In this document: one piece after another, positions 53,444-59,638 of the stretch
Numbering within the stretch: the stretch's first letter is position 1
Layout of the letters: each line of letters begins with the position of its first letter
Assembly (NCBI GenBank): GCA_910890315.1
Contig: CAJVGD010000006.1
Location: forward strand, 1,302,001-1,366,000
DNA: 64,000 nt
From: Serendipita indica DSM 11827
Lineage: Eukaryota; Basidiomycota; Agaricomycetes; Sebacinales; Serendipitaceae
Direction of reading: 5' to 3'
Notes under the pieces: model-generated
What the model saw: only the letters and a program-made list of their open reading frames with translations
The model's database searches: none
What the model was told of the DNA's origin: nothing
Position numbers and translations under genes: made by a program

Positions 53444-54444
53444 ATGACTCACCCCAAGCTCTCCCTTGCGCCACTCCAATTTGCCACTCTCGACACCGAC
53501 CAGCTTGAACATGTATTCTCTTTTATGGACCAGACTGCCGTGGACCGTGCTCGCAGGTTCTATCATCAAGACGATGCCTGGCGTATGCCAATTTGACTTG
53601 GGATCTTGCAAACTAACGGCTTGATGTAGGATTCCTCATTGGGCGGATGCTACGAATTGTGATGTTGGGCGATATTGGCAGAGATCGAGGGCTTACAGTC
53701 CCAAATTTGGAGTTCAGCCAAACGCCTGCTGGAAAGCCCTACATAGTACTTATCTTTGCGTTCCCATCCTCAAGTCTTATATCACAGTAGGTCGCTCCGC
53801 AATCCCTTTCGTCTGTAGGATTCAATGTCTCTCATGACGGTGCCGTCGTTTTGATGGGGATCCTGGAGACTCGAGGATCCTCGGGTGCATCAGCCATTGG
53901 AGTCGATATAATGAAGGCGGAGATTCCGGTCAACGATGATCTACTATCGTTTATTGCTTCCATTGAGAGCACGGTACGATTGATGTGCACCTTATTTCAC
54001 TAACGTGACGGGATACAGCTCACAAGGAGCGAATCTCGACATCTGCGCCAACTTGCCGCTGCTGAGAGCACACGTTCACAAGCCACGAAGCACTTGTTTC
54101 AGCTTTGGACACTCAAAGAGGCCTATGTCAAGGCACTAGGAGTCGGCATCACCTTTGAACTCTCTCGCATTCATTTCGATTTCGAGACCTCTGTTCTCGC
54201 AGTTGATGGGGAGCCTTTGGGCCGTTGGGGCGTCATTTCATTTGGATTATCGAGTCTCTTCAGTGGTGATGTACTGGAGGAGTACGTTGGCGCTGTCTGT
54301 TATCAGCTCGATAGTTCAGATGTAGAGACCGGAGGTATTGTCGAGTGGGTATCAGTGGCTGAAGACCACCGCTTCACGTTTGTAGACCAGCATGATCTCA
54401 TTCAGAGGGTTGCTCCCGGCTCTAGTGTCGTCAATGCCTCGTAG
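53444..54444 (+). CDS. 4'-phosphopantetheinyl transferase (Sfp/Lys5 type)
   Basis: Transfers phosphopantetheine from CoA to a serine of carrier domains; in fungi this activates Lys2, fatty-acid or secondary-metabolite synthases. It starts MTHPKLSLAPLQFATLDTDQ, with RARRFYHQDDAWR joined to FLIGRMLRIV; then LEFSQTPAGKPYI, FNVSHDGAVVLMG, SAIGVDIMKAEIP (the G-V-D metal site) and, after a GT-AG intron, LFQLWTLKEAYVKALGVGI, the W-x-x-K-E-x-x-x-K signature. The C-terminal ~95 residues are family-typical. All catalytic motifs are present. The junction between GKPYI and FNVSHDG (about 53740-53820) does not close in phase with any GT-AG pair I tried, so it is unresolved. Partner carrier proteins are not in this window; LYS12 lies in the same pathway as Lys2. 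Confidence 0.83.
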
Positions 54445-54768: not shown

Positions 54769-57700
54769 ATGTCGACCCAAAAGTCAACCAAACGCAAGAA
54801 ACAGCGCGGGACTGTCAATTCATCGGGATCCCCGCCTGTACCAAGGCCAACAAACAAGAAACGTCAAGTATACGACATGGTCAACGTCGGCCTCGACATA
54901 GCGGCCAATATCGCCGAGGGATCGGACATTCTCGCTCCACTAAAGGCAGCTTGTCGAACAACAAAGTCGATTCTCGAAGTTGCGCAGGCAAGTTGGCGAA
55001 ACCGACAAGGCATTTATCTGACAACAAGATAGGCGACAGAGAATAACCAAGAGGAATGGACCGAGCTAACAGCACGTGTGAACGGATACATGTCCACAAT
55101 CGAGGAACAAATAGCGTTATTTGAGACATATCCTCCAGAAGACATGGCCATTAACGAGGCGTTCAAACGGCCGCTCGTCCACTATGTCAAGTATGTGCGC
55201 ATTCCAAGTTTGCTTCAGTAGGCTGAGCGATGCAGATGCCTGGAAGACATGCACGATAAGGTTGTCAATCTAAAGGAGAAACGTCGCCTCGACAAGCACG
55301 CCTTTTCTAAAGCAATCATCAAAGTGAAAATTGATGCAGAGGAGATTCTTAAACTCAATCGGGATATCGAGGATCGGCATAGCCAATTCATGGTACGAGC
55401 CTTCATCCGTCTTATTCACGAGTTCACTGCATACACAGGGTGCATTGGGACTTTTTGCCGCATTGCGTATTCAAAGCGTTGAGCGGAATACCAAGGTTAT
55501 CAAGGCTGACGTTGAGGCCACCAAGGCAAACGTGGAAATCGTCCTGACAGACGGTAAGACTAGAGCTTCGTATGGGACATGCTTACTTAGTATTCAAAGT
55601 TGACTCCGCCGCAATACTCCAGCTACCAACAGCAGCTTTTGTGGCATCCTCTGTCCATAGGACCTGTCTGACAGGAACGCGCGATGCTGTTCTTCAGACC
55701 ATCTACCGCTGGGCCGACGATGCTACGTCGGATAAGCCAATATTCTGGCTCTGCGATATCGCTGGCTCTGGCAAATCCACAGTCGCCATGTCTGCAGCAG
55801 ATGCTTGGAAGAAGGAGGGAGTGTTAGGTGGCCAATTCTTCTTCTCTCTTACAAGCAGCGAAGGATCAACCACCGACAAGTTCTGCTCCACCATAGCAAG
55901 AGACCTTGTTGACTACATACCCAAACTTGGCTCACACGTCGCCGGAGCCGTGAAGCGGCATCCCTCGCTCATACGAAGCTCTCTCCAAGAGCAGTTCCGT
56001 ATGCTCGTCATTGAGCCTCTTCATCATCTCCAAAGATGTGTCATTCTCGTCATCGACGCTCTTGACGAATGTCAATCTGGATCGCAGAGAAGAGAGCTTG
56101 TTGAAATGCTTTCTACAGCTGTTAAAGAAGTGACAAACCTCAAGATATTCATGACGAGTCGACCAGACCCTGTGATCCAAGCAGTCTTGGGATCGCTTTC
56201 AATCAAGTCCAAGCTGGAAGACCGCCTGCACGATGTTCATCATCGTGATAACATCGATGATATTGCAACTTACATACACAAGGAGCTAAACGACGTACTG
56301 CCGGAGGCCAGGAGGCTGAGACTGGTCGAGAAGGCCAATGGATTGTTTATTTGGGCAAGCACGGCATGTCGAATGCTCAGTAGCGAAACTACATTAGACT
56401 TGCCGGAAAGCATCTATGATCGCCTGATCTCAGTGGACCAGACTGGAGAGATAGACGACGTTTATAAGCTCGTTTTCGAGCGTGTGGACCTGAGATCCTA
56501 TCCAGCTATGTCCAATATGCTCGCTTTGCTGCTTGCTGCATTCGAGCCACTCAGTATCGATGATTTGGACGACATGTTCAAGAACCTTGGGCTCAAGTGG
56601 AGTTCTAGGGCACTGGTACAGAACCTAGGAAGTGTGCTCAGTGTAGACCCAAGTACGAACTTGATCCAATTCCGCCATCCTACCCTTGTCGAATACCTTC
56701 GACGGTGTTCCTTCGCATCAGCTCCCAACAAACCCAATACACTCCATCTCAATGTGACCAAGGCGCATGGTCAGGCCGCATCATGGTGTCTCAAACGACT
56801 CATGTCGCGGACTGATGGTCTTAAGTTTAATATATGTCAACTCGAGTCATCTTTCTACCTCAATAGAGAGATTCCAAACCTAAAGGCGAGGATATCGAGA
56901 CTCATTCCAAAGGCACTTCGATATGCCAGCTCTCATTGGTTGCTCCATGTGGCGGAAACTGATGACACCTGGCGATCCATGGTCAAGAGGGAACTTGAAC
57001 AGATTATTCAAGCTCCACATGTGCTATACTGGATGGAAGTGCTGAGCTTCACTGGGGGTGTGCCACGAGCAATAGCTGGCCTTCGAGCTATTGGACGCCA
57101 CACAGGGGTAAGTCGCTGATCCTAACGAATTCAACGCTTACACAACAGACAGGGTGAAATGTGGGATAAAGCCAGGATGGACCAAATTCGACGGTTTATA
57201 ATGACATTTTCGGTACCGATCCAAGAGAGCGCGCCACACATTTACATTTCTGCACTGCCGTTTGCCCCTATAAAGTCGATATTACATATCGAGGGTGCAA
57301 AAAGATACAGGAACCTTCTTCGCGTAACAGAAGGCCTCGAGGAGATGTATTCTGGGCTCCCAAGTAGTCTTCGAGGTCACGAATCCGGGGTCAACTCCGT
57401 CGAATTCTCGCCAGACGGCTCACAGATTGTGTCTGGCTCGGATGACAACACAATTCGATTGTGGGATGCGGCAACTGGTCAGGCTGTGGGAGAGCCACTC
57501 CGAGGTCATGAAGGTTGGGTCTTAGCCGTCGCATTCTCGCCAGATGGCTCACAGATTGTTTCTGGCTCGTACGACAAGACAATTCGATTGTGGGACGTGG
57601 CAACTGGTCAGGCTGTGGGAGAGCCACTCCGAGGTCATGAATCCGGAGTCAAGGCCGTCGGATTCTCGCCAGACGGCTCACAGATTGTGTCTGGCTCGTA

Positions 57701-59638
57701 CGACAACACAATTCGATTGTGGGACGCGGCAACTGGTCAGGCTGTGGGAGAGCCACTCCGAGGTCATGAATCCGGGGTCAACGCCGTCGGATTCTCGCCA
57801 GACGGCTCACAGATTGTGTCTGGCTCGTCGGACAAGACAATTCGATTGTGGGACGCGGCAACTGGTCAGGCTGTGGGAGAGCCATTCCGAGGTCATGAAT
57901 CCGGGTCAACGCCGTCGGATTCTCGCCAGATGGCTCACAGATTGTGTCTGGCTCGTCCGACAAGACAATTCGATTGTGGGACGCGGCAACTGGTCAGGCT
58001 GTGGGAGAGCCACTCCGAGGTCATGAATCCGCGGTCTTTGCTGTCGGATTCTCGCCAGACGGCTCACAGATTGTGTCTGGCTCGTTGGACAAGACAATTC
58101 GATTGTGGGACGCGGCAACTGGTCAGGCTGTGGGAGAGCCACTCCGAGGTCATGAATCCGGGGTCAACGCCGTCAGATTCTCGCCAGACGGCTCACAGAT
58201 TGTGTCTGGCTCATACGACAAAACAATTCGATTGTGGGACGCGGCAACTGGTCAGGCGGTGGGAGAGCCACTCCGAGGTCATGAATCCGCGGTCTTGGCC
58301 ATCGGATTCTCACCAGACGGCTCACAGATTGTGTCTGGCTCGCACGACAAGACAATTCGATTGTGGGATGGGACAACTGGTCGGGCTGTGGGAGAGCCAC
58401 TCCGAGGTCATGAATCCGGGGTCAACGCCGTCGGATTCTCGCCAGACAGCTCACAAATTGTGTCTGGCTCGTACGACAACACAATTCGATTGTGGGACGC
58501 GACAACTGGTCAGGCTGTGGGAGAGCCACTCCGAGGTCATGAATCCGCGGTCTTGGCCGTCGGCTTCTCACCAGACAGCTCACAGATTGTATCTGGCTCG
58601 TACGACAACACAATTCGATTGTGGGATGCTGCAACTGGTCAGGCTGTGGGAGAGCCACTCCGAGGTCATGAATCCGGGGTCTTGGTCGTCGGGTTCTCGC
58701 CCGACGGCTCACAGATTGTGTCTGGCTCGTACGACAACACAATTCGATTGTGGGACGCGACAACTGGTCAGGCTGTCGGAGAGCCACTCCGAGGTCATGA
58801 ATCCGCGGTCTTGGCCATCGGATTCTCGCCAGACGGCTCACAGATTGTGTCTGGCTTGTACGACAACACAATTCGATTATGGGACGCGGCAACTGGTCAG
58901 GCCGTGGGAGAGCCACTCCGAGGTCATGGATCCCTGGTCCACGCCGTCGGATTCTCGCCAGACGGCTCACAGATTGTGTCTGGCTCGTCCGACAGGACAA
59001 TTCGGTTGTGGGATGCGGCAACTGGTCAGGCTGTGGGAGAGCCACTCCGAGGTCATGAATCCGTGGTCTTCGCCGTCGGATTCTCGCCCGACGGCTCACA
59101 GATTGTGTCTGGCTCGTCGGACAAGACAATTCGATTGTGGGACGCGGCAATTGGTCGGGTTGTGGGAGAGCAACTCCAAGGTCATGAAGGCGGGGTCAGC
59201 GCCGTCGGATTCTCGCCAGACGGCCCACAGATTGTTTCTGGCTCATACAGCAACACAATCCGATTATGGAATACAGAAACTGGTAAGTTTAACTCCACTC
59301 GTCTTCGAGATAGTGATGCGACCCGATAAATAGCATTAGGTGCAAAAGCAAATGCCTCCGACCAGGATGATACAGAGTTTGTATATTCAGATCTACGGGG
59401 CACTCCTCTCAGACTCGTTGTGCCTGGATTCAATCAGTGCTCACTTTCGCTCGATGGTTGGGTACATTCTTCCAGCAAACGTCTCTTCTGGGTGCCACCA
59501 GACAATCGACGGGGACTAAAGTATCCGTACCGCCTGACAATTCCGACTAGCGCCCCATTCCGTGTGACGAAACTTGATTTCACTAATTTCCAAAGTGGCT
59601 CCTCTTGGACAAAGGTTCGAACAGACGCGTGCTCGTGA
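54769..59638 (+). CDS. NACHT-WD40 NLR with four-helix-type N terminus
   Basis: Fungal NLR of the STAND class, roughly 1,500 residues; relatives act in non-self recognition and programmed cell death. It starts MSTQKSTKRKKQRGTVNSSG. An alpha-helical N domain (VYDMVNVGLDIAANIAEGSD, LKAACRTTKSILEVAQ, NQEEWTELTARVNGYMSTIE and two later exons) resembles MLKL/HeLo-type four-helix bundles; that is inference. The NACHT has IFWLCDIAGSGKSTVAMSAA (Walker A), CVILVIDALDEC (Walker B) and LKIFMTSRPDPVI, followed by the helical arm IYDRLISVDQ... and HPTLVEYLRR. A linker (YISALPFAPIKSILHIEGAK) leads to about 15 WD40 repeats of 43 residues, 57375-59282. The last exon gives VPGFNQCSLSLDGWVHSSSK and FWVPPDNRRG, the cap usual for this family. 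The first intron is GC-AG. In repeat 5 (57901-57905) one G is missing from a GGGG run, so WD repeats 1-4 and 5-15 lie in different frames. Confidence 0.88.
54988..55032 (+). other. GC-AG intron in the NLR N-terminal domain
   Basis: 45-base intron with donor GCAG|GCAAGTT and acceptor AAGATAG. Splicing joins ILEVAQ to ATENNQEEWTELTARV in phase; reading through hits a stop after about 12 codons. Confidence 0.75.
57375..59282 (+). repeat. WD40 tandem array, 15 units of 129 bp
   Basis: Unit length is exactly 129 bp (for example ggtcatg at 57504 and 57633). The consensus reads LRGHES-x-V-x-A-V-G-F-SPDGSQIVSGS-x-D-x-TIRLWDAATGQAVGEP. Most units differ at only a few bases, and the changes fall mainly at the x positions: G/A/V/L, N/K/F/L/H/S, Y/S/L/H/D and N/K/R. 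Unit 1 and units 2, 14 and 15 at the edges are the most diverged, as expected if the centre is homogenised by recombination. One unit (the fifth) is 128 bp. Confidence 0.93.

What the first reader, a model, noticed from the sequence alone, without database searches (positions are those of the whole stretch)
57375..59333. NLR WD40 array with a one-base frame change and a second fully open frame
Unit 5 has ccgggtc where the other ESGV units have ccggggtc, so the array changes frame at 57901-57905. Because each unit is 129 bp (3n), the shifted frame is also repetitive and stays open for about 475 codons to 59333, encoding a different Arg/Leu-rich 43-residue repeat (HRLCLAR...RLWESHSEVMNP). Only the WD frame splices into the conserved C-terminal cap. 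A single G slip in any of several GGGG runs would therefore switch the sensor between a 15-blade WD protein and a 4-blade protein with a novel repeat tail. It may be strain variation, phase-switch-like behaviour, a broken allele or a read error in a collapsed repeat.
Basis: partly seen in the sequence, partly recalled or inferred. Interest (0 to 1): 0.8.

Follow-up and report, generated by a model that had tools for sequence, protein, structure and literature searches.

The report
Probable sequencing slip in fungal sensor
A fungal immune-sensor gene built from near-identical repeats appears to change reading frame part-way along; the break looks like one of many small errors left in a nanopore genome assembly rather than a molecular switch, and the long second reading frame is a by-product of the repeat.

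Summary
The sequence is as described: of 14 spacings between 15 WD40 units, 13 are 129 b and one, at unit 5, is 128 b; the upstream frame then stays open to 59333. The switch reading is not supported. The genome (24.7 Mb, 55 contigs) fits Serendipita indica Si-2020, a thin nanopore R9.5 assembly polished with short reads, from a heterokaryon. Frame-changing indels occur in 12 of 20 paralogous arrays and 4 of 8 more. Without one contig-end copy, 24 of 27 events are deletions and 20 of 27 lie in 12 of 129 columns, the hypervariable codons; arrays with more alike units have more. None of 236 clean units has a WD-frame stop. The shifted frame is stopped in 12 of 12 break-free arrays tested, models as unfolded (pLDDT 37.9 against 93.5), and is open by chance in 11% of recoded units. 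Consensus error is the best reading (0.75), a real private or nucleus-specific break the second (0.18). A like artefact is published for Podospora het-d. Reads would decide.

The parts
54769..55599 (+). N-terminal exons of the NLR gene with their introns (start codon and exon ends inferred by eye)
   Evidence: ORF pieces; the pieces scanned gave no Pfam match (at E<=0.001, three pieces, at E<=1); the piece at about 55440-55555 was not scanned
55600..57107 (+). NACHT exon (NTPase), intact here
   Evidence: PF05729 44.6 bits against a cut-off of 26.7 and PF24883 90.3 bits; ends at a GTAAGT donor
57372..59269 (+). WD40 tandem array, 15 units of 129 b (unit 5 128 b)
   Evidence: TRF, spacing, WD40 PF00400 in both frame segments
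57891..58018 (+). Unit 5, one base short; the shortening lies in the G run 57903-57905, at hypervariable codon 5 of the unit
57903..59333 (+). Shifted frame read on from the upstream WD frame: Arg-rich 43-residue repeat, no stop until 59331-59333
   Evidence: first 301 residues predicted unfolded
57899..59282 (+). Downstream WD40 frame (units 5-15), still showing coding constraint
   Evidence: 19 of 37 codon changes outside the hypervariable codons are synonymous against 27% expected; 301 residues predicted as propeller, pLDDT 93.5
59283..59339 (+). Intron, GTAAGT...TTAG, 57 b (inferred from sequence)
59340..59638 (+). Conserved C-terminal cap exon, joined in its conserved frame only by the WD frame
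   Evidence: tblastn match in 20 of 20 fetched loci, self included, some partial

Best explanation
This is an ordinary member of the large NACHT-WD40 receptor family of Serendipita indica. Its WD40 array is made of near-identical 129-b units with a few hypervariable codons. The one-base shortening in unit 5 is most likely not in the organism's DNA. It is a residual consensus error of a thin nanopore R9.5 assembly of a heterokaryon: long reads drop a base, or reads of alike units, paralogues or the two nuclei are mixed, and short-read polishing cannot place reads inside near-identical repeats. Shown here: the break, its recurrence in many sister arrays, the clustering, the deletion bias, coding constraint downstream. 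Inferred: the identity of the assembly and the error mechanism; no reads could be examined.
For: Genome of 24,708,602 b in 55 contigs against 24.7 Mb in 57 contigs reported for Si-2020, built from 324 Mb of MinION R9.5 reads (about 13x by division) with Canu and Pilon (passages of PMC8385953). A transporter exon matches PDB 7sp5 at 191 of 192 residues. Frame-changing indels in 12 of 20 paralogous arrays and 4 of 8 further ones. In the 19 arrays left after dropping L023 (34 events, contig end): 27 events, 24 deletions, 20 in hypervariable codons. More events where units are more alike: rho 0.56, p 0.0125. The same shortened G run recurs in L013 and twice in L023 (4 short against 27 full forms over 20 arrays). 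No WD-frame stop in 236 units, so no sign of decay. Conserved-gene control: 53 neighbouring exon matches in 39.4 kb of matched stretches give one clean one-base break, in an HSP70-family gene on C44, plus 3 break-like junctions in two fragmentary HSP70-like copies. A like artefact is reported for Podospora het-d of strain TG+, tied to R9 data (passage of PMC12222747).
Against: The run is only four G long in the sister units, not a classic nanopore trouble length. This array is among the less homogeneous ones (internal identity 0.939), where polishing should work better, and it has a single event. Real inherited frame breaks seem to occur in the family: L018 and L019 share one in the NACHT exon, and 5 of 18 NACHT exons aligned carry breaks, so the array excess over NACHT exons is only about threefold (0.77 against 0.26 per kb, my division). 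Podospora also has a read-supported disrupted het-d array (Wa87+). Six alike losses at one codon in L010 are not a simple homopolymer error.
Confidence: 0.75

Rival explanations
1. A real, private loss-of-function allele, or a variant of one of the two nuclei: one copy of a fast-turning receptor family has recently lost a base in unit 5, leaving a protein with four intact blades and a meaningless tail, probably inactive and possibly cleared by nonsense-mediated decay.
For: A NACHT-exon break is shared by L018 and L019; the strain is a heterokaryon with 2.6 SNPs per kb; a read-supported disrupted het-d allele exists in Podospora. The lack of stops and the retained constraint fit a very young break too.
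Against: The same kind of break recurs in 16 of 28 arrays examined, clustered and deletion-biased; the 19 arrays hold 27 non-3n events against one 3n event, with no nonsense changes in clean units.
Confidence: 0.18
2. A mutational process in the fungus strikes the hypervariable, specificity-giving codons and yields both new specificities and frequent frame breaks, so that arrays flicker on and off.
For: 20 of 27 frame-changing events lie in 12 of 129 columns (binomial p about 1e-15; 14 of 21 counting each array and column once, p 2e-10). Further arrays show events at like columns, beside others.
Against: Gap placement by the aligner is drawn to variable columns, and a consensus made from mixed units or paralogues would be expected to fail at just those columns (inference). 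No reads; no known mechanism.
Confidence: 0.05
3. A phase switch or dual-coding array: slippage in G runs toggles between a full WD40 receptor and a short receptor with a new functional tail.
For: Units are 3n, so the shifted frame can stay open: 190 of 236 clean units lack a stop in it, and long open runs exist in some break-free arrays.
Against: No run above 4; shifted frame stopped at least once in 12 of 12 break-free arrays; openness of a unit has an 11% chance expectation; shifted tail unfolded in prediction; variation between units follows the WD frame.
Confidence: 0.01
4. The frame is restored after transcription, by -1 ribosomal frameshifting or by an unusual intron across unit 5.
For: The downstream WD frame still shows constraint.
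Against: No X XXY YYZ heptamer in the upstream frame over 57126-59330 and no GTRNGT donor in 57361-59300 other than the one at 59283.
Confidence: 0.01

Closest known systems
Podospora anserina HNWD receptors het-d / het-e (NACHT-WD40 with high internal conservation)
   Same: NACHT followed by near-identical WD40 units, with hypervariable codons. Variable codons here are 4, 5, 7, 23 and (third base) 25 of the unit; with a constant offset of 7 they match 11, 12, 14, 30 and 32 of the published list 10, 11, 12, 14, 30, 32, 39 (the offset is my inference, not an alignment).
   Different: Units of 43 residues instead of 42; about 14-15 units in 15 of 20 arrays instead of usually 11; basidiomycete; no HET domain found in the N-terminal pieces scanned.
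The TG+ het-d single-base deletion (PMC12222747, passages read)
   Same: One base lost in a small homopolymer of one WD40 unit in a long-read assembly, judged a likely misassembly from short-read mapping and tied to R9 data.
   Different: There reads were inspected; here none could be.
Phase-variable (contingency) loci with homopolymer tracts (general knowledge)
   Same: A one-base change would switch the reading frame.
   Different: No long tract, second frame not conserved, no predicted fold; does not meet the defining features tested.

Membership tests
Fungal NACHT-WD40 NLR with high internal conservation | NACHT domain | tested here: met
   PF05729 44.6 bits, cut-off 26.7
Fungal NACHT-WD40 NLR with high internal conservation | Tandem WD40 units over 85% identical | tested here: met
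   DNA identity to the array consensus 0.939; [quoted passage not shown]
Fungal NACHT-WD40 NLR with high internal conservation | Few hypervariable codons in otherwise constant units | tested here: met
   Column entropy over 14 arrays, codons 4, 5, 7, 23, 25
Fungal NACHT-WD40 NLR with high internal conservation | Diversifying selection at those codons | not tested
   No dN/dS test was run
Fungal NACHT-WD40 NLR with high internal conservation | Recognised N-terminal effector domain | tested here: inconclusive
   No Pfam match to the exon pieces scanned; one piece not scanned
Fungal NACHT-WD40 NLR with high internal conservation | Role in non-self recognition | not testable with these tools
   Needs genetics
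Phase-variable (contingency) locus | Long hypermutable tract | tested here: not met
   Longest homopolymer 4
Phase-variable (contingency) locus | Alternative product kept open in relatives | tested here: not met
   At least one stop in 12 of 12 break-free arrays, 3 of them over a clipped span
Phase-variable (contingency) locus | Length variants in a clonal culture | not testable with these tools
   No reads held
Programmed -1 ribosomal frameshift | Slippery heptamer in the upstream frame | tested here: not met
   None over 57126-59330
Residual long-read consensus error | Excess one-base deletions in hard-to-place repeats | tested here: met
   24 deletions of 27 events, more in more homogeneous arrays
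Residual long-read consensus error | Absent from raw reads | not testable with these tools
   No reads held

The most novel reading that the evidence does not exclude
The indels are real DNA and strike the specificity-giving codons of the WD40 units across the family: a targeted mutational process that diversifies receptors and, as its cost, breaks frames often enough that about half of the arrays are out of frame in any one nucleus.
Probability: 0.05. Interest if true: 0.8.

Novelty: not a real feature. Interest (0 to 1): 0.2.

Why it matters
If the break is an error, 16 of the 28 WD40 receptor arrays examined in this assembly may be mis-framed on paper, so counts of receptors, pseudogenes and blades in this endophyte, which had the largest NLR set in a 2014 survey (274), need accurate reads first. 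If real and targeted, it would be a new way of diversifying immune receptors.

Tried and rejected
Phase switch, dual coding, ribosomal frameshift and intron rescue were each tested and rejected. Pseudogene decay was tested by WD-frame stops: 0 of 236 clean units, which speaks against an old broken gene, not a young one. The raw alignment gave spurious paired gaps in L024 and L027; it was redone with costlier gaps. L023 (contig end, 34 events) was dropped from the counts of 27; 12 of its 34 lie in hypervariable columns. Literature on frame switching in such arrays: searches (5 papers; 20 papers, 10 listed; no paper holds all its terms), judged from titles and starts of abstracts; only PMC12222747 looked alike. 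PARCEL repeats (PMC2996958, one passage) were looked at as a possible precedent for frame switching in repeats and set aside. A DUF2576 match to the shifted frame (19 residues, just over its cut-off) is taken as chance in a repetitive sequence.

Full report
What is there. The window holds a NACHT exon, a linker, a 129-b tandem WD40 array at 57372-59269, a 57-b intron and a conserved C-terminal cap matched in 20 of 20 fetched loci, self included. Of 14 unit spacings 13 are 129 b and one, at unit 5, is 128 b. Upstream of it the WD frame runs in 57126-59333, downstream in 57899-59329.

Which genome. The window is C6:1302001-1366000 of a genome of 24,708,602 b in 55 contigs. A phosphate transporter exon matches PDB 7sp5 at 191 of 192 aligned residues; that 7sp5 is the S. 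indica protein PiPT is recalled, and a listed abstract speaks of the crystal structure of PiPT of a fungus (search listing only). Passages of PMC8385953 describe the 2020 assembly of S. indica: 57 contigs, 24.7 Mb, GC 50.8%, MinION R9.5 with 324 Mb of reads, Canu, Pilon with MiSeq. Window GC averages 51.3% over eight 8-kb blocks. The two-contig difference is unexplained, so the identity of the assembly is an inference. Passages of PMC3192844 conclude that the strain is most likely a heterokaryon with two genetically distinct nuclei and 2.6 SNPs per kb, and count 99 NACHT-WD ORFs; a passage of PMC4986451 gives 274 NLRs.

The family-wide test. One search reports 167 matches in a capped list that I grouped by eye into about 40 arrays, a lower bound; 20 were fetched, mostly the best matching, then 8 more, so 28 of about 40. 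A motif scan found frame changes in 10 of 20; alignment to the unit with costly gaps found non-3n events in 12 of 20 (L009, L010, L013, L014, L016, L020, L021, L023, L024, L025, L026, L027). In the second batch 4 of 8 change frame by the motif scan (L033, L035, L037, L039) and 4 keep one frame (L034, L036, L038, L040); the alignment also put gaps into L036, L038 and L040, at ragged ends or cancelling out, which I did not count. The break of this window is thus one of many.

What the breaks look like. Without L023 (34 events, last 6 kb of its contig) there are 27 non-3n events in 11 of 19 arrays, 24 of them deletions, 24 of size 1; 20 of 27 fall into 12 of 129 columns, the hypervariable codons 4, 5, 7 and 23. 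The shortened G run of this window recurs in L013 and twice in L023, 4 short against 27 full forms over 20 arrays. In L010 six units lose a base at codon 7. Aligners favour gaps at variable columns, so part of the clustering may be placement. Arrays with more alike units have more events: Spearman 0.56, p 0.0125, 19 arrays (with identities). Over about 35 kb of array this is about 0.8 per kb (spans, my sum).

Controls. In conserved genes (ACC, HSP70, CCT and actin families) 53 neighbouring matches over 39.4 kb of matched stretches give 7 junctions too short for an intron: one clean one-base break in an HSP70-family gene on C44 (looked at), four junctions in two fragmentary HSP70-like copies (three break-like, one a missing stretch), and two in actin-family genes that I take as alignment ambiguities and did not look at further. 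So the assembly holds a few such breaks in conserved genes, far fewer than in arrays. In the NACHT exons of the same genes 5 of 18 aligned copies carry seven uncompensated breaks; L018 and L019 share one, which is therefore inherited, copied, or a shared artefact. L023 was left out of that alignment as too broken; L009, the reference, is intact. Real breaks and errors may both exist; I lean to error for this one because it is private, single, and in a gene that is otherwise intact.

Is the broken stretch decaying? Among 236 clean units none has a WD-frame stop. In nine clean units downstream of the break 19 of 37 codon changes outside the hypervariable codons are synonymous, against 27% for random changes, p 0.002; upstream, in four units, 4 of 9. 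So the break is absent or very young.

Is the second frame special? The shifted frame is stop-free in 190 of 236 units, so it is a family-wide by-product. In 12 of 12 arrays without a frame change it has at least one stop (8; 4, of which L036, L038 and L040 were clipped). Against this, open runs of 513, 515 and 619 codons occur in L012, L015 and L019 and of 500 in L036, and L012, L019 and L036 have a single stop each. Recoding one unit at random leaves it open 11% of the time. Without an alignment AlphaFold2 gives 301 residues of the WD frame a mean pLDDT of 93.5 and 301 of the shifted frame 37.9. With normal splicing the shifted frame would end near 59517, not 59333.

Rescue. No slippery heptamer in the upstream frame and no GTRNGT donor inside the array.

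Prior record. PMC12222747 (passages, not the whole text) reports a one-base deletion in the third het-d repeat of strain TG+, judged from short reads to be a misassembly in a small homopolymer, a problem said to be worse in R9 data, and also a read-supported disrupted array in Wa87+. That is the closest known case. The passages of PMC6868369 read treat assembly errors in tandem repeats in general.

Verdict. Observation confirmed; switch not supported; consensus error most likely (0.75), real private or nucleus-specific break second (0.18). The clustering of indels at specificity-giving codons is the one odd thing left, and reads would settle it.

Noticed in passing
L018 and L019, NACHT exon (alignment columns about 955-957): Two paralogues with fully in-frame WD40 arrays share one frame break in the NACHT exon, so it is inherited, copied between them or a shared artefact: possibly true pseudogenes or an unrecognised gene structure.
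   Followed up: partly
L010, 3866-5147: Six of about 14 units lack one base at the same hypervariable codon 7, a pattern that a plain homopolymer error does not explain.
   Followed up: partly
L020, 3569-6259: Array of about 21 units, three times seven, where 15 of 20 arrays have about 14-15, close to two times seven; may reflect whole propellers gained at once.
   Followed up: no
L023, whole locus: Copy at the end of contig C19 has 34 frame-changing events in the array and a shattered NACHT exon, as would be expected of thin coverage at a contig end.
   Followed up: partly
L032, about 740-770: Conserved HSP70-family gene with a one-base frame break, a hint of residual errors outside repeats.
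   Followed up: partly
window 54004-54444: Upstream neighbour is a 4'-phosphopantetheinyl transferase-like gene (PF01648).
   Followed up: no
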